IMG/VR virus record: IMGVR_UViG_3300021964_000662
Location: 1 to 21,356 of that record
Strand: one strand, 5' to 3'
Length of the DNA stretch: 21,356 bases
From: a virus
The notes below the pieces were generated by a model. It saw only the letters and a list, made by a program, of their open reading frames with translations. It did not search any database and was not told where the DNA came from. A program made the translations under genes and the position numbers. Shown here one piece after another: positions 4,312-17,780 of the stretch (the first letter of the stretch is position 1; each line of letters opens with the position of its first letter).

Positions 4312-4541
4312 TAGAATTCTCCTACTGTTCCATTCTTAGCATAAAAAGCAGCTGCCCCACGTTCGTACGAAGTTGAGGCGCGAAGCTTACGTATTTTCTC
4401 TTCAAAGAAATCTTTCTTGATCTCGTCGTGTAAAATATTTATTGCTTTGACCCAGCCTTTGTTCATCCAGAACGTAACTAACAACTCGTCCTGCTTGGCA
4501 AAGATTTCCTTTGCACCTGGTACATCAATATTACGTAACAT
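4311..4541 (-). CDS. Unknown 76-aa protein
   Basis: A mostly helical protein (GAKEIFAKQDELLVTFWMNK, INILHDEIKKDFFEEKIRKL) with a Ser/Ala/Gly-rich C-terminus (STSYERGAAAFYAKN). The start ATG 4541 has GGAGG nine bases upstream and sits 11 bases inside the preceding gene. No motif recognised. It is the second gene behind the early-type promoter at 4785-4813. Confidence 0.7.
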   Translation of the reverse strand: MLRNIDVPGAKEIFAKQDELLVTFWMNKGWVKAINILHDEIKKDFFEEKIRKLRASTSYERGAAAFYAKNGTVGEF

Positions 4542-4758
4542 TTTTTGTAGCCTCCGCTGTACGATTGTTATTTAACTTTAACAACGCGTAATTCAAATTA
4601 GTGATTGCACCACGCATTGCTTCCGTTTCAACAGCACTTGCATCGATCGTTTGCAAATCATTGTACATACGATCCAAGGTAACTTGCATCTTTTTGATTT
4701 CCATCATCATGTCCCAACGTGGTGTATTAGAAGCTGCAACTTTATTTAACATTTTCAT
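4531..4758 (-). CDS. Unknown 75-aa helical protein, first gene after an early-type promoter
   Basis: The protein is predicted to be all helix (MMMEIKKMQVTLDRMYNDLQ, AITNLNYALLKLNNNRTAEA) and may form a coiled coil. The start ATG 4758 has GAGGAG nine bases upstream. It is the first gene downstream of the T4-early-like promoter, with a leader of roughly 20 bases after the predicted transcription start. That suggests expression immediately after infection and possibly a host-takeover role (inference). No family recognised. A second ATG two codons on (4752) is possible but has no better ribosome site. Confidence 0.75.
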   Translation of the reverse strand: MKMLNKVAASNTPRWDMMMEIKKMQVTLDRMYNDLQTIDASAVETEAMRGAITNLNYALLKLNNNRTAEATKNVT

Positions 4759-4813: not shown

Positions 4814-4848
4814 ATCGATTTCAATATTTTTTTCACTAACAATTTCAA

Positions 4849-5175
4849 TCATTTATTTAAATGTTTGCACTCGCCTCGGAACTTGAATCCTGTGCAGGTG
4901 CATGTGTTCTTTGTTTTGTTGACCTGGTACACTTTACCTTTCGATCCAGCTACTTCAATGATGTCATCATCGTGCTCTTCAGGTACTGTACCAACTAAAT
5001 CAAATGTACGACCTCGAGTGTCAAACTTCAGCGGTTTTGTATACTTATCTAAACCCCTAGAGTAATCACCAACTTGGAACCAGACAAGTTTGTCTTTCTC
5101 GTTGACATAATACAAATGTGGATGATAGAAGAACTCATCCACCTGGCCAGTTGTTTCACAAAGAATACGGATCAT
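4849..5175 (-). CDS. Small SWIM zinc-finger protein (108 aa)
   Basis: The C-terminus carries a SWIM-type zinc-binding motif CxCx8CxH: C92, C94, C103 and H105 in CTCTGFKFRGECKH. SWIM domains are small zinc-binding modules in transposases, MEKK1 and DNA-repair partners, where they mediate contact with DNA or proteins. Residues 1-80 contain strand-rich sequence (LYYVNEKDKLVWFQVGDYSR, TFDLVGTVPEEHDDD) of no recognised fold, and KGKVYQVNKTKNT leads into the motif. The gene starts at ATG 5175 overlapping the upstream 28-aa ORF (ATGA) and belongs to the operon driven by promoter B. The zinc motif is clear; target and function are unknown. Confidence 0.72.
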   Translation of the reverse strand: MIRILCETTGQVDEFFYHPHLYYVNEKDKLVWFQVGDYSRGLDKYTKPLKFDTRGRTFDLVGTVPEEHDDDIIEVAGSKGKVYQVNKTKNTCTCTGFKFRGECKHLNK

Positions 5176-5361: not shown

Positions 5362-5613
5362 TTAAGCCCTCGCTAAAACTTCTGATGCGTCAAATACTGA
5401 GAAGAAACGTGGCTTCTTAGAAGTCTCTGTTTCGTCCTCATCCTTTGAGAACATTACCAGCCTAGCACAAGCTTTCAAACCTTTCAATTTTTTACCTGGG
5501 ATTCCCAGGTCACGAGTTGCCTGCTTGAAGGTAACGACTGCATCAACACCAACAGCTGCCAAAGTTTCTGCGTTCATGCCAGTGTACTCACGCTTTGTTA
5601 CAAAATTCATCAT
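5362..5613 (-). CDS. Small protein resembling the ArdC N-terminal domain (83 aa)
   Basis: The sequence follows the pattern of the N-terminal, ssDNA-binding domain of the anti-restriction protein ArdC (DUF1738 type): REYTGMNAETL (YxGxNxxxL), then VTFKQATRDLG (TFKQAxxLG), a basic GKKLKGLKAC, LVMFSKDE, and KKPRFFSVFDASEV (VF near the end). The zinc-metalloprotease half of full-length ArdC is absent, so this is a stand-alone domain. The start is placed at ATG 5613 (or 5610) behind AAGGAG. The earlier in-frame ATG (5643) lies in the -10 of promoter B and would not be transcribed. It is the first gene after that promoter, so early synthesis is likely. The similarity is by eye, so the family call is moderate and an anti-restriction role is inferred. 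Confidence 0.6.
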   Translation of the reverse strand: MMNFVTKREYTGMNAETLAAVGVDAVVTFKQATRDLGIPGKKLKGLKACARLVMFSKDEDETETSKKPRFFSVFDASEVLARA

Positions 5614-5641
5614 ATCTATCTCTCCTTCATTTGATGTAGCC

Positions 5642-5670
5642 ATTATCCTATATTATATGAAAAAGAAAAC
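5642..5670 (-). promoter_or_regulatory. T4-early-type promoter B
   Basis: On the - strand GTTTTC (5670-5665) and GATAAT (5647-5642) are 17 bases apart, the same spacing as promoter A. The two share ATATAGGATAATGG at the -10 and then (T/C)A(T/C)... ATCAAATGA with a GGAG ribosome site. The -10 contains the ATG that opens the longer reading frame of the gene behind it, which shows that the shorter start is the real one. Predicted transcription start is about 5635. Confidence 0.68.
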
Positions 5671-5696
5671 AGTTTTTTTGTAATTATTTGAATTTA

Positions 5697-5903
5697 TTAT
5701 TCTGAAGGATTTGAATCGGTTAGATGATAAAGCTCATCCAGGTTGTAGTAATGAATACCGTCCGAATCTTCGTACGATATGATGAGGGGTTCGTCGTCTA
5801 ACATAATACTGGAAAGAAGTTCTTGTAGCTCCCGAGCGAGTTTTTTTTCTTCTTCCAGCTCTTTTCTTTTTCTGAATTCGTTAATATTAGTTATATTTGA
5901 CAT
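5697..5903 (-). CDS. Unknown 68-aa acidic protein
   Basis: The N-terminal half is a charged helix (INEFRKRKELEEEKKLAREL) and the C-terminal half is acidic with aromatics (IISYEDSDGIHYYNLDELYH). The ATG at 5903 overlaps the last 17 bases of thyX in another frame, with a poor ribosome site, so translation probably depends on thyX. It is the last gene of the replication operon before promoter B; the 53 bases between its stop and the next gene's promoter show no obvious hairpin terminator. Function unknown. Confidence 0.65.
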   Translation of the reverse strand: MSNITNINEFRKRKELEEEKKLARELQELLSSIMLDDEPLIISYEDSDGIHYYNLDELYHLTDSNPSE

Positions 5904-6564
5904 ATTCTGCTATACCAGGAAATATTGCCGCAATAGCGCATGCACATTCTCTAGCAACCTCCATATGTTCTTTCTGAGTTCCGTTACCTGAACGTAGTTC
6001 AATATAATGAATCCACGATCTAATAGTTCCATTCATATACAAACGCGATGTTGTTAGACCTTCGGGTAACAAAGCACGTGCTTGTTCTTTTGCAATACCA
6101 AGCTTGATCGCTCTTTTGTATTCTCGTTCTGCCATCCACATAACACGACCTTGAATGCGATACCATTCACGTTCAAGCTCTTTGTCCTCAACTTCGATCG
6201 AGTTCTGTCGATTCTTTTCATCTTGCAGCCGAGCCTCACGCCGAACAAACATTTCATCAAACTCTTGGTCTGGATTTGCATATCGCTGAGAAAACTCTTG
6301 AAAGGAAAATGATCGATGACGTAGAATCTGTCGAGCAATGTCTCTTGTAGTCTCAATCTCTAAACAAGCACTGACCATCTCGAACGGGGACCAGTGTTTA
6401 TGCTTTGATAGATATCCAAGGAGTTTCTCATTCGTCTCCTTGTTGAGCTGGTTGGATGGGTTGGAGACACGGGCACAGAAGGCGACGAGATCTTGTATTG
6501 AGGAGTCGGCTTGTTCTCCCAATTCAGGATTTGGTTGCGAGTAAGATACAAGTTTAACATTCAT
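5887..6564 (-). CDS. thyX: Flavin-dependent thymidylate synthase ThyX
   Basis: ThyX methylates dUMP to dTMP using methylene-tetrahydrofolate as carbon donor and FADH2 as reductant. The family signature RHRxxSxxxxSxR is present exactly as RHRSFSFQEFSQR (residues 82-94), and the C-terminal substrate-binding region LTTSRLYMNGTIRSWIHYIE and LRSGNGTQKEHMEVA also matches. At 225 residues it is the usual length. The start is taken as ATG 6564, which overlaps the MazG-like stop (ATGA, 6561-6564) and gives the expected MNVKLVSY N-terminus; an ATG six codons earlier (6582) lacks a ribosome site. It sits with MazG-like and dUTPase-like genes, so the phage adjusts thymidine supply during replication. Confidence 0.95.
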   Translation of the reverse strand: MNVKLVSYSQPNPELGEQADSSIQDLVAFCARVSNPSNQLNKETNEKLLGYLSKHKHWSPFEMVSACLEIETTRDIARQILRHRSFSFQEFSQRYANPDQEFDEMFVRREARLQDEKNRQNSIEVEDKELEREWYRIQGRVMWMAEREYKRAIKLGIAKEQARALLPEGLTTSRLYMNGTIRSWIHYIELRSGNGTQKEHMEVARECACAIAAIFPGIAEYVKYN

Positions 6565-6806
6565 AGCTCCAGGTTGCTCCATTGTTTTAATTTGTGTCGT
6601 TTGGCTTTTGAGCCGTCCACAAGATCTGTGTATGTCAGCAATTGCTTTTCAATACAGATTTCCATCATACAGTAGAGATCCCCAAGTTCTTTTTTAAACA
6701 TTTCCGTTGATTGTTCACTAGGAAATCTTAGCATCTTTGAGCAGGCTTGAATAACCTCCCCACACTCTTCAGATGTAATCGTCATTAACTCTTCATGCTC
6801 TGTCAT
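6561..6806 (-). CDS. MazG-like NTP pyrophosphohydrolase (81 aa)
   Basis: The MazG/all-alpha NTP pyrophosphatase motif is visible: EECGEVIQACSK (EExxE, residues 13-17) and KKELGDLYCMM (ExxD, E40 and D43), which bind the Mg2+ needed to hydrolyse (d)NTPs to the monophosphate. At 81 aa it is a minimal single-domain version, as in many phages. Phage MazG proteins are proposed to cleanse dNTP pools or to alter ppGpp, but the substrate is not known here. The start is set at ATG 6806, overlapping the helicase stop (ATGA); a start three codons earlier (6815) is possible. The downstream gene thyX overlaps in the same way. Confidence 0.82.
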   Translation of the reverse strand: MTEHEELMTITSEECGEVIQACSKMLRFPSEQSTEMFKKELGDLYCMMEICIEKQLLTYTDLVDGSKAKRHKLKQWSNLEL

Positions 6807-10834: not shown

Positions 10835-11081
10835 TTTCTTGCTCACGTTCCCATATCAAATTTTCCACATGCACGATCACATTAGAGAAACCCATCTGAA
10901 GAGGATGGTTATCATTAAGTTCTTCATTTCTAAAATGATCAAGCTCAGCTAACTGCTCGTCAGTCAGTTCCTCAACAGACTCTATACCATAATATTCTGT
11001 AACATATTCTTCAACACATTCAGTCATCTCTCGTTCTACCCAGTCGAGAATCTTGTGTGTTCTGTGCCATTCAAAAGCCAT
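10809..11081 (-). CDS. Unknown 90-aa acidic helical protein
   Basis: The protein is acidic and helical (HKILDWVEREMTECVEEYVT, SVEELTDEQLAELDHFRNEE) with a terminal acidic tail. ATG 11081 overlaps the stop of the transglycosylase-like gene (TAATG), and GGGAG precedes it by eight bases. It follows directly on the deazaguanine block, which makes a partner role possible, but nothing in the sequence shows one. No family recognised. Confidence 0.7.
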   Translation of the reverse strand: MAFEWHRTHKILDWVEREMTECVEEYVTEYYGIESVEELTDEQLAELDHFRNEELNDNHPLQMGFSNVIVHVENLIWEREQENETDQSDE

Positions 11082-11947
11082 TACTCTGCTCCCACTAGCT
11101 TGTCAATAAAGTCTATATTATACACTACTGAGTTCAATTGGTCAATACCAACAGCATCTTTCCATGGAGGTCCAAGACTAGCAGGGAAATCAAATTCAAC
11201 TTCTTTCTCAAACTTACCATTGACAAGACCAGTAGGAGAGTTATCAAAACGAACATTATTCAGTCCAGCCCACACTGCAGCAGACGAATCCCAGGTAGCA
11301 ATGTATTTGTGCCATGGTTCAAGCAATGAGATCTCGTTCGGACCATCAACCATACCCAGGCAATGGAAGATCCCATAATAATCGTTATGATTGTTGAAAT
11401 ACCCTCGTTGTGTTAATAACTCAAGGATACGATAGCGAGACATGTACCGCTGAAGCTTGTTATCTTTCTCTACACCAAATGCATTAGGACATCCAAGGAT
11501 AGAAAGACCAATACGATCCACATAATTACGACCATCATCTAAAGCCCATTCCATACAGTACAGATAATCTTCAAGATCACCTACCTCAGATTGAGGAACG
11601 AAGAATGTATCGTATCCTTCTCTATGATAGATCGGAGCTGTTTCTTCTGCAGCTGCAATCGTCCTAGACGAATGTTCACCAGGATAGTCGGACATGACAA
11701 TCATATCTGCTCTACAGGCTTCAGCCATTGGAAGAAGGTCATCAGTGGAGTACATTGGACGACCCTGCTTATACATCTCGAAAGCAGAGTTATCCATAAT
11801 CTTCTGCTTACCATCATCCAGGTTAGCATAGAAGTCTCGATAGACAGGATCCTGCTCAACAAGGTGAGCCAGGATTAGATGTGCACCATTGGTACGAGTG
11901 AAAGCACCGAGAAACGCAGTCGGTGCAATATGACAAAAGTTAACCAT
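11081..11947 (-). CDS. dpdA: DpdA/Tgt-like DNA guanine transglycosylase (putative)
   Basis: The order of motifs fits the tRNA-guanine transglycosylase TIM-barrel family: IMDNSAFEMY (50-59, equivalent to the DSGGFQ segment), ADMIVMSDYPGE (80-91, equivalent to the DECTP segment), a conserved middle part (EDYLYCMEWAL, YVDRIGLSILG), HCLGMVDGPNEI (195-206, equivalent to HxLGxGxPxxI) and TWDSSAAVW (218-226), where D220 would be the catalytic nucleophile. The C-terminal CxCxxC zinc site of tRNA Tgt is missing. Phage DpdA proteins exchange guanine for a 7-deazaguanine in DNA. The operon partners FolE, QueD-like and QueE make the same base pathway, which supports the DNA rather than tRNA assignment. 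The start ATG 11947 has AAGGA upstream. Similarity is by eye, so the sub-family is not resolved. Confidence 0.72.
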   Translation of the reverse strand: MVNFCHIAPTAFLGAFTRTNGAHLILAHLVEQDPVYRDFYANLDDGKQKIMDNSAFEMYKQGRPMYSTDDLLPMAEACRADMIVMSDYPGEHSSRTIAAAEETAPIYHREGYDTFFVPQSEVGDLEDYLYCMEWALDDGRNYVDRIGLSILGCPNAFGVEKDNKLQRYMSRYRILELLTQRGYFNNHNDYYGIFHCLGMVDGPNEISLLEPWHKYIATWDSSAAVWAGLNNVRFDNSPTGLVNGKFEKEVEFDFPASLGPPWKDAVGIDQLNSVVYNIDFIDKLVGAE

Positions 11948-13001: not shown

Positions 13002-13250
13002 TCATTTCAAATAAGTTCCCCAAGGATACCTCATTTCTTCCGGTAGGTCAACAGGCCCACCTTGATCTAACCACATTTTAGAGATAGTGTAAATGGCGCA
13101 ACCATCTACAACTACATCACGCCATCTACATTCCATTTCTTCAAAATCATAGATGCCATCAGGAACTTTCTTTCTGAACTTGTCTGGCATCACATGAGTG
13201 CGGAAGTACTTCTCTAAGACTTCTTCACCAATCAAATCACGCAGATCCAC
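13002..13250 (-). CDS. Unknown 82-aa protein, GTG start
   Basis: The frame opens at GTG 13250, which overlaps the last codons of folE by 14 bases; the first in-frame ATG is only at residue 21, so GTG is the better start. Sequence features are DLRDLIGEEVLEKYF, a Cys/Trp segment (DFEEMECRWRDVVVDGCAIY) and WLDQGGPVDLPEEMRYPWGT. The family is not recognised. The overlap with folE suggests coupled expression. Confidence 0.65.
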   Translation of the reverse strand: MDLRDLIGEEVLEKYFRTHVMPDKFRKKVPDGIYDFEEMECRWRDVVVDGCAIYTISKMWLDQGGPVDLPEEMRYPWGTYLK

Positions 13251-13911
13251 GAATATTTGCCATTACTTCTTTACGAAGCTCACTATTGTGTACACCAAAT
13301 TCACCAAGGCAACATGCCGTAACAGTTGTTGAGTTTGTATCCTTGATACCACGCTGACTTACACACGTGTGACCTGCTTCAACGACAACCATCACATCCT
13401 GGCTACCAGTAATGTAAGCAATTGCATGAGCAATCTGCTGTGTCAGCCTCTCCTGGACCTGAGGACGCTGAGCGAAGTATTGAGTGATACGATTGAGTTT
13501 AGATAGGCCTAGGACCTTCTCTCCTGGGATATAAGCGATGTGGGCATGACCAATGATAGGACGTAAGTGATGCTCACAATCAGAGTACAGAGTAATGTTC
13601 TTCTCAAGAACAAACTCATCACCGTGACAGAACTTATTCTCTACAGTAGTACACTTAGGGAATGTATCGTAACGAAGACCAGAAAAGATCTCATCAACAT
13701 ACATCTTAGCAACACGCATAGGTGTTTCTTCTAGTGAGTCGTCAGTCAAGTCAAGACCAAGTACTTCGAGCATCTCTTTAGTAAGGTCGGCAATCTTACT
13801 GATCTTCTCATCACGATCAGCTTTGACCATCTCGGTGATAGGAGTATTGATACCCCAAGCGTCCAGGTGTTTATTGACCGCACGGCCTAGTTCAGGATTA
13901 CTTTTAGACAT
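13237..13911 (-). CDS. folE: GTP cyclohydrolase I (FolE)
   Basis: FolE converts GTP to 7,8-dihydroneopterin triphosphate, the entry step to folate, biopterin and 7-deazaguanines. The catalytic core is clear: SDCEHHLRPIIGHAHIAYIP (110-129) gives zinc ligands C112 and H115, EKVLGLSKLNRITQYFAQRP follows, and EAGHTCVSQRGIK (178-190) gives the third ligand C183. At 224 residues it matches the bacterial enzyme (about 220). The start ATG 13911 has AAGGA seven bases upstream. It shares the operon with QueD-like, QueE and the DpdA-like gene, so it most likely supplies the deazaguanine pathway here. It is preceded by an unusual GC-rich leader (13912-14029). Confidence 0.95.
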   Translation of the reverse strand: MSKSNPELGRAVNKHLDAWGINTPITEMVKADRDEKISKIADLTKEMLEVLGLDLTDDSLEETPMRVAKMYVDEIFSGLRYDTFPKCTTVENKFCHGDEFVLEKNITLYSDCEHHLRPIIGHAHIAYIPGEKVLGLSKLNRITQYFAQRPQVQERLTQQIAHAIAYITGSQDVMVVVEAGHTCVSQRGIKDTNSTTVTACCLGEFGVHNSELRKEVMANIRGSA

Positions 13912-14029: not shown

Positions 14030-14602
14030 TTATTTATACTCTTTCAGCTTTTTAGCTGGACTCTGCCAGTCCCATAGGGGCTTTTCAATCAAGTAATTAT
14101 CGATCGATGCATTCTTCTTACCTTGCTTGAGAGCAGCCTTTTCATCGATTGTAATGAAAGCAGAATTCTTCTCATGCTCACGACACTCGACTCGAGAGAT
14201 GTAGGCTCGCCCATCAGTAATTAAATAAATGAATGGATTGACCTGTTCCCAGATAAAGATCGACGACATCTCCATTGATACTCCATATGGAAGTATCCGA
14301 AGGTCTACAAGACCAGCTCCATAAGCCAAAGTAATATCATCCATACGAGGATCATCTGCACCAGCCAAAGCTGTGTGATCAAAATAGTACTCAAGAAAAC
14401 TTTTCACTTTCTTTAGATCACCAAAGCCAACAATCCATCCATGTTCGTCAGCTTCACCAGCAAACTCAAAATGAACAGAACGATCATAGCCGTGCCACTT
14501 AGAGCATGGTCCCTCACATTCTCGTCCTAGCTCGTCTGTATCAAACCATTGCATATGAGCAACAGGAAGATTGTAGTACGACTTAGTGCTTCGTAGTATC
14601 AT
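14030..14602 (-). CDS. queD: QueD-like 6-carboxytetrahydropterin synthase (190 aa)
   Basis: QueD converts dihydroneopterin triphosphate to 6-carboxy-5,6,7,8-tetrahydropterin. The family layout is visible: VAHMQWF (H16, a zinc ligand), CSKWHGYDRSVHFEF (C33 and H37), HGWIVGFGDLKKVKSFLEYY, FDHTALAG (catalytic His of the LDHxxLN segment), and PYGVSMEMSSIFIWEQV in the place of PTSEN. The normal HGH second histidine is Tyr39 (HGY), so one zinc ligand appears to be replaced. At 190 aa it is longer than E. coli QueD (121), with insertions in the middle and a C-terminal extension. The start ATG 14602 has AAGGAG seven bases upstream and overlaps the upstream gene by 20 bases. Confidence 0.82.
   Translation of the reverse strand: MILRSTKSYYNLPVAHMQWFDTDELGRECEGPCSKWHGYDRSVHFEFAGEADEHGWIVGFGDLKKVKSFLEYYFDHTALAGADDPRMDDITLAYGAGLVDLRILPYGVSMEMSSIFIWEQVNPFIYLITDGRAYISRVECREHEKNSAFITIDEKAALKQGKKNASIDNYLIEKPLWDWQSPAKKLKEYK
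14031..14038 (-). promoter_or_regulatory. TATAAATA, T4 late-promoter-like box
   Basis: The exact T4 late promoter octamer TATAAATA lies on the - strand 120 bases before folE, overlapping the final codons of the queD-like gene (Tyr-Lys-stop). The same octamer occurs inside the polymerase gene, where it merely encodes Tyr-Lys-Tyr, so this copy may also be chance. Confidence 0.25.
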
Positions 14603-15333: not shown

Positions 15334-15708
15334 ATGGTCGATAGAACTACACCCAAATATCAAGCAATTGGGGCCAAAGCCCAACAAACAATGAGAACAA
15401 AAAGACGTCAGTGGTTTTTTGAATACAAATCTGGACTGTCTTGCGTATATTGTGGGGAGAACAACCCCCTCTGCCTCGATTTGGATCATATTGATCGATC
15501 CAGTAAGAGGGGCATCATAGCCACTATGATAACTGGTGGATATGCTTGGGAACGCGTTATGGAGGAAATTGAAAAATGCCAACCCGTTTGTGCCAACTGT
15601 CATCGTATTAAATCCATACTCGAATCAAGTAAAATGCAACATGTAGACATTGAAAAATATATCCCTGAAAACATGTTACACTTACGTCCCGATCTGATTT
15701 CCGAATAG
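15334..15708 (+). CDS. Freestanding HNH homing-type endonuclease
   Basis: A 124-aa HNH nuclease with a zinc-knuckle pair: CVYCGENNP (C37, C40) and CANCHRIKS (C86, C89), flanking LDLDHIDRSSKRG (D51, H52) and the final N88/H90 of the ββα-metal motif. The same arrangement (CxxC, LDxDHID, EIEKCxPVCANCHR) is typical of freestanding HNH genes in phages. The gene is antiparallel to all its neighbours, between the phosphoribosyltransferase gene and queE, and overlaps the last 27 bases of queE. Such genes spread by cutting related genomes that lack them. It has AGGAG eight bases before ATG 15334. The overlap means it is in an intergenic site rather than interrupting a gene. Confidence 0.9.
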   Translation: MVDRTTPKYQAIGAKAQQTMRTKRRQWFFEYKSGLSCVYCGENNPLCLDLDHIDRSSKRGIIATMITGGYAWERVMEEIEKCQPVCANCHRIKSILESSKMQHVDIEKYIPENMLHLRPDLISE

Positions 15709-16611
15709 GTAGCAATGTACCCGAGCTGATACATTGTATCCTCGTTCGTACGCTATCTTAGCCACATCACCCGCCACCTCGTGTTGTCCTTCGACGGTGG
15801 CAGAAACGGGCATCACCCAGACAGGCCAATAAACATTCTTGGCTCGGAGATCAGCGATCACACTTTCCATCTCTTCCCACTGTTCCTTCTCAGGACCCAT
15901 CACAAACTTCAGCTGACCTGAAGGACCATGATCTCTACGATATTGTGATTGAGCAATATCATGATACTGAGCAATAACATCAGGCTTGATAGCTCGCTTA
16001 GGATCTTCACCAGCAACGGTCCATAGCTTAGGAGATACAGAGAAGAATGTAGGAATTCTATTCCTCACACGACCTGTAAAGTACTCTACAAAATCATCCT
16101 TCAACGGTTTCGTACCATTCGTCTCAAATGTAAGACCACCGGGTGCTTGGCCCATCACCTTGAACTCTTCAAGGATTCCCACAATACAATCCTGACTAGT
16201 GGGCATCAAAGGCTCACCCCCAGTAAAACACATATGGGATGTTTGACCAGATACAGGATGTGTAAAGTCTCCGTCTGGGTTTGAATCTGTTACAAGAACT
16301 TTTCGAATATGTTCGGCTAGTTCTTCGGGAGTGCCTTTGCCCATCAAATGCTTGAACTTCTTCGACCAGGTATAAGAACTATCACAACCTTTCTCGAATA
16401 CAGGAAGATCCTCAACACGAGTAATATCTGTCAGATCAATTTTCTCGTATGGAAGATCATAGGTATCCGGATTAGTTGGATCCTCTTGCCCAAACCCATT
16501 ACACTGCAGGTTACATAAGAAGAATCTAAGCCAGGCTGTCGGTACACCAGTGTAATGCCCTTCCCCCTGGATAGAGTTAAATATTTCACTGTATAAGTAT
16601 TCTTTCATCAT
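15682..16611 (-). CDS. queE: 7-carboxy-7-deazaguanine synthase QueE (divergent radical SAM)
   Basis: QueE turns 6-carboxytetrahydropterin into 7-carboxy-7-deazaguanine with a radical SAM cluster. Landmarks are SIQGEGHYTGVPTAWLRFF (13-31), C33 and C37 (FLCNLQCNGFGQ), C76 in GCDSSYTW, and FTGGEPLMP (129-137, the GGEP SAM contact). The usual CxxxCxxC is here CX3C plus about 38 residues plus C: the third cysteine of the canonical spacing is replaced by Phe40, and the CDSSYTW cysteine is the likely third ligand after an insertion. At 309 aa it is longer than B. subtilis QueE (243). ATG 16611 (with 16608 and 16620 as alternatives) is preferred. The frame is open upstream to 16710, but that overlaps the primase gene. 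Confidence 0.85.
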   Translation of the reverse strand: MMKEYLYSEIFNSIQGEGHYTGVPTAWLRFFLCNLQCNGFGQEDPTNPDTYDLPYEKIDLTDITRVEDLPVFEKGCDSSYTWSKKFKHLMGKGTPEELAEHIRKVLVTDSNPDGDFTHPVSGQTSHMCFTGGEPLMPTSQDCIVGILEEFKVMGQAPGGLTFETNGTKPLKDDFVEYFTGRVRNRIPTFFSVSPKLWTVAGEDPKRAIKPDVIAQYHDIAQSQYRRDHGPSGQLKFVMGPEKEQWEEMESVIADLRAKNVYWPVWVMPVSATVEGQHEVAGDVAKIAYERGYNVSARVHCYLFGNQIGT

Positions 16612-16621
16612 GATTCCCATT

Positions 16622-17560
16622 TTACATGTTTTTGTAGACAAATTCAAGCGCTCTGTCCGCTTCTTTGTCAAACGGTCTATTAGCATACCAGTTGCCTGTA
16701 TCTTGATCAAACTCCTTGCATAGATGGGTTATCTCAGATGCTGTGATAGGATACTCACGCTTAACAGCATTAGCAGCAATCGATACCATAATTCGATACA
16801 TCGTATGGTACCAACCAGTTCCAGTGATTGATCTATATTCTGATTCAAGGTGTTTAGGGAAGAATGGACAGTCGCGATACGATGTCCAATGGTAGCCAGT
16901 ATTTTCTAATTTAGCTTTTCGGTGTTCAATAATCTGCTTTTGCATTTCCTCTGGCAGACGATCGATAAAATTATTTGAGTCTCTTTTCTCTGAGTATGGA
17001 AACTCAGACATCAACTCATCTGGATCAATAGGTTGTACGCTACCACCAGTAAAAATAAAGTTGTCAGCGCCGAGATATTGACCAGGGATATAATACATTC
17101 TTGATAGATCTTTAGTTTGGCGATCGCCGATGTCGCCGAGCTTTGATTGGAGAGCGTACCAGAAGTGTTTGATATGATCTTTTCCAACTCTTCGTCTAAG
17201 TGGAAATACAAGCCTAAATTTCGGCGAATCGCTCCTGCTACTTGCAGTACTATAGCAAACGTAGTGATAATCACCAGCCAGTACATCCAACTCACTCTTT
17301 AAGTCTCCTTTAAATTCATGATCGTCAACATCAACTGCACACCAGCCACCCCAGTCTACAACATTGTTGTTAGCTCTTGTTGTATCTGGTATATAGGTGG
17401 CCGGGGATATTAGTTGAGCGTCTTTCTTACTTTCTCTTGGAACTTGTGCTAACTTATACAACAGCTGCTCAAACTCAGCGAAGGACTTGAAGTCCATTCG
17501 CTTATGAGTCTTGTTATCAAATATTTTATTGAAAATTGTTAATGATATATCAGTTGTCAT
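16622..17560 (-). CDS. Archaeo-eukaryotic-type primase-like protein
   Basis: The protein resembles AEP-superfamily (PrimPol-like) primases: WGGWCAVDVDDHEF (70-83) supplies the DxD-type catalytic acidic residues, YSTASSRSDSPKFRLVFPL (103-121) resembles the conserved Ser/His and basic segment, and KDLSRMYYIPGQ (150-161) is a third conserved block. The C-terminal half (WYHTMYRIMVSIAANAVKRE and the segment near NRPFDKEADRALEF) looks like the helical PriCT-type domain. AEP primases lay down primers and can fill gaps. T4 itself uses a DnaG-type primase (gp61). The gene lies between DNA polymerase and queE and overlaps the preceding ORF by 11 bases. Assignment is by motif, not by search. Confidence 0.65.
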   Translation of the reverse strand: MTTDISLTIFNKIFDNKTHKRMDFKSFAEFEQLLYKLAQVPRESKKDAQLISPATYIPDTTRANNNVVDWGGWCAVDVDDHEFKGDLKSELDVLAGDYHYVCYSTASSRSDSPKFRLVFPLRRRVGKDHIKHFWYALQSKLGDIGDRQTKDLSRMYYIPGQYLGADNFIFTGGSVQPIDPDELMSEFPYSEKRDSNNFIDRLPEEMQKQIIEHRKAKLENTGYHWTSYRDCPFFPKHLESEYRSITGTGWYHTMYRIMVSIAANAVKREYPITASEITHLCKEFDQDTGNWYANRPFDKEADRALEFVYKNM

Positions 17561-17780
17561 TTTTCACTAAGTAAATATTGTTTTCAGCTGGTGCACCTTT
17601 CTCATCTATAAATTCAAGATGACTAAATTCTGGTACATTATAGCCTATCCCCTTCAGGAAGTCAACATACGCGTCCAACATCTCATCACGTGATGCTTCA
17701 TCTGCAATTTCATGCACAATAGTCCGTGCTGCTGTAAATTCCTGATGAAATTCTGGGCATTCCCATTTAAGTGTAATCAT
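17550..17780 (-). CDS. Unknown 76-aa protein after DNA polymerase
   Basis: A small acidic protein, MITLKWECPEFHQEFTAART, then helical (IVHEIADEASRDEMLDAYVD) and an Asn-rich end (NIYLVKNDN). The start overlaps the polymerase stop (ATGA, 17777-17780), and the stop overlaps the primase start by 11 bases, so it is translated in the replisome operon. T4 places regA downstream of 43-linked genes, but this sequence is too short and too different to call RegA. No family recognised. Confidence 0.7.
   Translation of the reverse strand: MITLKWECPEFHQEFTAARTIVHEIADEASRDEMLDAYVDFLKGIGYNVPEFSHLEFIDEKGAPAENNIYLVKNDN

What the first reader, a model, noticed from the sequence alone, without database searches (positions are those of the whole stretch)
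5362..5613. Stand-alone ArdC-N-like domain behind an early promoter
The 83-aa protein follows the ArdC N-terminal (ssDNA-binding) pattern: YxGxNxxxL, TFKQAxxLG, a basic turn, a hydrophobic strand and a terminal VF. ArdC protects incoming DNA from restriction, and here only the DNA-binding half exists. Its place directly after a T4-early-type promoter suggests it works as soon as DNA enters, before the modification enzymes are made.
Basis: partly seen in the sequence, partly recalled or inferred. Interest (0 to 1): 0.6.

Follow-up and report, generated by a model that had tools for sequence, protein, structure and literature searches.

The report
Stand-alone ArdC DNA-binding domain in phages
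Uncultured T4-like phages carry, behind a dedicated early promoter, a very small protein that is just the DNA-binding core of a plasmid antirestriction protein, which gives a natural test of whether that half alone can protect invading DNA.

Summary
The 83-aa gene is real, and the ArdC-N reading holds. It belongs to a family seen in 70 uncultured viral loci and is under strong purifying selection. All 49 aligned members hit Pfam ArdcN, one over the curated cut-off. The family profile matches an ArdC-N alignment at 97% probability, against at most 0.8% in controls. A blind PDB search with the AlphaFold model ranks R388 ArdC first (Z 8.2 and 7.9; next unrelated 4.4). It is a trimmed ArdC-N: helix 1 with the PW..KPW segment, the linker and the metallopeptidase are absent, and no metallopeptidase was found in 18 records that carry it.

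The promoter also holds. Nearly every copy sits 21-33 nt behind a two-block early-type promoter (TGTTGACTT-15-GTATAATGG), although the neighbours differ in almost every lineage. In the window it is degenerate but at the same place.

Not shown: any function. The sub-claim that it acts before the modification enzymes is not supported, because queE lies in a run behind an equally strong early-type promoter. Most likely it is an early ssDNA/junction-binding protein that shields phage DNA. A domain-only form was almost absent among 80 ArdC-N viral loci, and I found no published description.

The parts
5362..5613 (-). 83-aa stand-alone ArdC-N-like protein (P0001)
5622..5625 (-). Shine-Dalgarno GGAG, 8 nt before the ATG
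   Evidence: sequence
5663..5671 (-). -35 block TGTTTTCTT of the early-type promoter
   Evidence: conserved in position over 57 distinct upstream regions
5640..5648 (-). -10 block GGATAATGG; the start codon of the longer 93-aa ORF lies inside it
5697..5903 (-). 68-aa conserved ORF upstream, present only in the close relatives; no known family
5887..6582 (-). thymidylate synthase ThyX, upstream context
   Evidence: phrog_85, 2.8e-69

Best explanation
The protein is a minimal, free-standing ArdC-N (beta-hairpin, BHD-like) DNA-binding domain made at the start of infection from its own sigma70-type promoter. Shown here: homology, trimmed architecture, promoter, purifying selection, shuffled neighbourhoods. 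Inferred: after synthesis it binds ssDNA, DNA ends or ss/ds junctions of phage DNA through its basic KKLKGLK turn and beta3-beta4 hairpin, and by occupying DNA keeps restriction or other nucleases of the host from acting on it, working like ArdC without its protease.
For: All 49 members hit PF08401, best E 2.9e-6, with no other family shared by more than 7; L046 is over the curated cut-off, 23.0 vs 22.6 bits. hhalign against ArdC-N gives 97.3-97.5%, versus at most 0.8% for 60 column-shuffled and 0.4% for 53 unrelated family alignments. Blind PDB fold search: ArdC 6sna/6i89 Z 8.2/7.9 over residues 42-131, next 4.4. The only PDB sequence hits of profile A2 are ArdC (E about 0.4). Basic protein, pI 9.2, conserved K30, R34, K44, K47, K67, R82. 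Own promoter in nearly all copies, family median 19.9 bits vs -2.1 for 342 other genes, with 25 named upstream neighbour clusters plus 10 unclustered ones, as for an autonomous early host-takeover gene. ArdC's protease active site is dispensable for antirestriction and its N-domain is the ssDNA-binding part (PMC7213743).
Against: No function was tested. The domain lacks ArdC helix 1 with the PW..KPW segment and the C-terminal strand, so DNA binding may differ. Type I enzymes cut dsDNA whereas ArdC prefers ssDNA, so the protective mechanism is unsettled even for ArdC. Phage DNA enters as dsDNA. The beta3-beta4 tip is acidic in many members.
Confidence: 0.45

Rival explanations
1. An early DNA-binding accessory of replication, recombination or repair (junction or lesion recognition, like the BHD modules of Rad4/XPC), not an antirestriction factor.
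For: In the window it lies near uvsX, gp41 helicase, thyX and mazG. The fold lists after ArdC are XPA and Rad14 damage-recognition domains, at low Z 2.9-4.4. ArdC-N is related to the BHD domains of Rad4 (PMC5512222, PMC7213743).
Against: Neighbours differ in most lineages, with uvsX or helicase nearby only in close relatives. T4 gp32 SSB is present in 11 of 18 records that carry it, so it does not replace the replicative SSB.
Confidence: 0.25
2. A counter-defence protein whose target is something other than restriction (for example RecBCD-type nucleases or another DNA-sensing defence), using DNA-end or ssDNA binding.
For: Early promoter, small size, plastic location and no cultured counterpart fit the general profile of host-takeover genes.
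Against: No direct evidence; no defence system is linked to it here.
Confidence: 0.15
3. A phage transcription or nucleoid regulator built on the domain.
For: Basic small DNA-binding domain at the head of a short gene run, with a median gap to the next gene of 2 nt.
Against: No operator-like repeats were sought or found; the domain family is described as non-specific ssDNA binding (PMC7213743).
Confidence: 0.1
4. Not related to ArdC; a chance motif likeness.
For: The window protein alone is under the Pfam cut-off, E 0.017, 15.8 vs 22.6 bits.
Against: Family-level sequence, profile with controls, and blind structure search all point to ArdC.
Confidence: 0.03

Closest known systems
ArdC of plasmids R388 and pSa, N-terminal ssDNA-binding domain (PF08401; PDB 6i89, 6sna)
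   Same: Signature T-G-x2-Y-x-G-x-N-x3-L, T-F-x-Q-A, basic KG turn, beta-hairpin and the VF(N/D) squiggle; same fold over ArdC 42-131
   Different: Lacks helix 1/PW..KPW (first about 35 model positions), the linker and the zincin metallopeptidase; 80-103 aa instead of about 300
Full-length phage ArdC (Caulobacter phages Ccr, Brevundimonas phages, Synechococcus phage Ssp-JY41)
   Same: Phage-borne ArdC-N
   Different: These carry the metallopeptidase (tested for the Ccr5 protein); of 80 ArdC-N loci in viral contigs, 78 have at least 244 aa from match to stop and only one short one is complete
Polyvalent proteins of phages and conjugative elements (PMC5512222)
   Same: Use ArdC-N as a DNA-binding header
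   Different: Multi-domain, thought to be delivered with the DNA; this one is a single domain transcribed after entry
Rad4/XPC BHD domains and Tc-38
   Same: Published distant relatives of ArdC-N; also short, beta-hairpin based
   Different: Eukaryotic repair and kinetoplast proteins; no direct match found here with P0001

Membership tests
ArdC-N domain (PF08401) | Profile score over the curated cut-off | tested here: inconclusive
   Window protein 15.8 bits, below 22.6; relative L046 23.0, above; 49 of 49 members match the model
ArdC-N domain (PF08401) | Core signature residues in order (YxGxNxxxL, TFxQ, KG, VF) | tested here: met
ArdC-N domain (PF08401) | ArdC-N fold (nested beta-hairpin) | tested here: met
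   AlphaFold model pLDDT 87; best PDB matches 6sna Z 8.2 (76 residues, 3.1 A) and 6i89 Z 7.9
ArdC-N domain (PF08401) | Helix 1 with PWxKPW | tested here: not met
   Matches begin at model position 36; the promoter lies 21-33 nt before the ATG, which leaves no room for it
ArdC-N domain (PF08401) | ssDNA binding | not testable with these tools
   Needs EMSA
ArdC antirestriction protein (whole) | C-terminal zincin metallopeptidase (PF18818) | tested here: not met
   Absent from the gene and from 18 records with the family; the model finds it in 4 of 4 control records. Many of the 18 are fragments
ArdC antirestriction protein (whole) | Antirestriction activity | not testable with these tools
   Needs plating or transfer assays
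T4-type early promoter | GTTTAC or GTTGAC -35 and TATAAT -10 near the start codon | tested here: met
   Met by the family as a whole; published T4-like consensus in PMC1524935. The window copy itself is degenerate (GTTTTC, GATAAT)

The most novel reading that the evidence does not exclude
A single trimmed ArdC-N domain, without protease or header helix, is by itself a working immediate-early antirestriction or anti-nuclease protein, spread as a gene-plus-promoter cassette through uncultured T4-like phages.
Probability: 0.4. Interest if true: 0.65.

Novelty: new variant of a known kind. Interest (0 to 1): 0.5.

Why it matters
How ArdC protects DNA is unsettled: its protease active site can be mutated without loss of antirestriction, so the DNA-binding part is suspected to be enough. 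A natural family that keeps only that part makes the question directly testable, and gives a very small DNA-binding fold that links plasmid antirestriction with the beta-hairpin domains of eukaryotic repair proteins. It also gives a name and a likely activity to a gene family of uncultured T4-like phages that no library labels.

Tried and rejected
Relatives in cultured phages: none credible. The weak Erwinia phage hit (E 8) lies inside a 4128-nt (about 1,375-aa) gene and was dropped. PHROGs and NCBIfam gave no hit for P0001. The conspicuous TATAAT just upstream of the conserved -10 was rejected because it is not conserved in L003 and L023. A plain TTGACA/TATAAT scan did not list the window promoter; the family-trained model did. 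A missing protease encoded elsewhere was rejected as far as 18 records allow. A role as replacement replicative SSB was rejected because gp32 coexists. No Rad4/XPC chain appeared in the PDB lists, which is not evidence against that kinship. A DpdA-like reading of the 288-aa protein at 11081-11947 came from memory only and found no support.

Full report
Observation. The ORF 5362-5613 (minus) encodes 83 aa after a GGAG Shine-Dalgarno. Nothing similar is in 50,697 phage records at DNA or credible protein level, but IMG/VR gives 19 close relatives and 70 in all with a profile. Where both rates could be measured against ten relatives, dN/dS is 0.04-0.20. The gene is real and selected.

Virus. The window carries UvsX, DnaB-like (gp41) helicase, ThyX, MazG-like, primase and a family-B DNA polymerase whose best relatives are Kyanoviridae and cyanophages at 47-52% identity. 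Six of 18 records with the family encode a T4 major capsid protein (Gp23, E below 1e-145) and 11 encode gp32. These are uncultured T4-like phages.

Homology. P0001 alone is a weak ArdcN hit (E 0.017, below cut-off). Family evidence is strong: 49 of 49 members hit PF08401 and no other family recurs in more than 7; L046 passes the cut-off. Profile-profile comparison with nine ArdC-N sequences taken from plasmids and phages gives 97.3-97.5%. Controls: 60 column shuffles at most 0.8%, reversed 0.1%, 53 other families at most 0.4%. Profile A2 against all PDB sequences lists only ArdC, though at E about 0.4. The AlphaFold model (pLDDT 87, pTM 0.73), searched blind against the PDB, ranks 6i89 first in Foldseek (E 0.13), and VIA-align gives 6sna Z 8.2 and 6i89 Z 7.9 over the whole model, with the next rows at 4.4. 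No single one of these is final (Z about 8 alone can be a common arrangement), but independent routes agree.

Architecture. The match begins at Pfam position 36: helix 1 and the PW..KPW segment that ArdC proteins share are missing, as are the linker and metallopeptidase. The promoter position leaves no room for a longer N-terminus. PF18818 is absent from all 18 records searched, five of them about 98-147 kb, and present in four of four controls. Among 80 ArdC-N loci fetched from viral contigs, 78 run at least 244 aa from the match to the stop and one short one is complete, so a domain-only form is unusual there, although that search favoured close ArdC relatives.

Promoter. Across 57 distinct upstream regions a two-block motif (TGTT[G/T]AC[T/A]T, 13-15 nt, GTATAATGG) lies 21-33 nt before the ATG. 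Family median is 19.9 bits (18.8 leave-one-out) against -2.1 for 342 other genes, and no shuffle reaches the family's lower quartile. A few copies (L025, L064, L067) score poorly. The window's copy (TGTTTTCTT-14-GGATAATGG) is degenerate, but scored with a model trained without its clade it beats 1000 of 1000 shuffles. Related phages share descent, so these are not 57 independent cases; the spacers between the two blocks nevertheless differ. The motif matches early promoters of T4-like phages, GTTTAC with G at -33 in several phages (PMC1524935). It occurs in front of other genes too: in the window before the 75-aa ORF at 4531-4758 and before primase followed by queE, and 27-29 times per 140 kb in two long relatives against 7 in shuffles.

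Neighbourhood. Upstream neighbours fall in 25 clusters plus 10 unclustered cases, downstream ones in 21 plus 14. The constant unit is promoter plus gene. It often heads a short run, with a median gap to the next gene of 2 nt.

Mechanism. ArdC's N-domain is the non-specific ssDNA-binding part, its protease active site is dispensable, and the authors propose that DNA binding alone interferes with HsdRMS (PMC7213743). The phage protein keeps the core, the basic turn and the VFN/VFD squiggle. I therefore put most weight on an early DNA-shielding protein, with repair or replication accessory as the main rival.

Novelty. ArdC-N, ArdC in phages and polyvalent proteins are known (PMC5512222). I found no description of this trimmed single-domain family in the held literature, which is not exhaustive. 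It is a new variant of a known kind.

Noticed in passing
13237-13911, 14030-14602, 15682-16710: FolE, QueD-like and QueE-like genes together: a 7-deazaguanine precursor pathway, possibly for DNA modification; no transglycosylase was identified.
   Followed up: partly
11081-11947: 288-aa conserved protein without any Pfam, NCBIfam, PHROG or PDB hit, with relatives in Aeromonas, Vibrio and Rhizobium phages (39-49% identity) and an early-type promoter in front of its likely homologue in L090.
   Followed up: partly
4531-4758 with promoter at 4814 (minus): A 75-aa orphan ORF with an early-type promoter even closer to consensus (TGTTTACCT-14-GGATAATGG) than that of the ArdC-N gene.
   Followed up: partly
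4849-5175: 108-aa protein ending in a SWIM-like zinc finger (CxC..CxH, Pfam E 0.012, below cut-off).
   Followed up: no
15334-15708 (plus): HNH endonuclease-like ORF on the opposite strand, overlapping the 3' end of queE.
   Followed up: no
L088, promoter at 17676 (minus); cluster 33: A protein resembling DUF932/TIGR03299 proteins (from memory, not tested) recurs near the ArdC-N gene in seven loci, and a similar one has a strong early-type promoter in the closest long relative.
   Followed up: no
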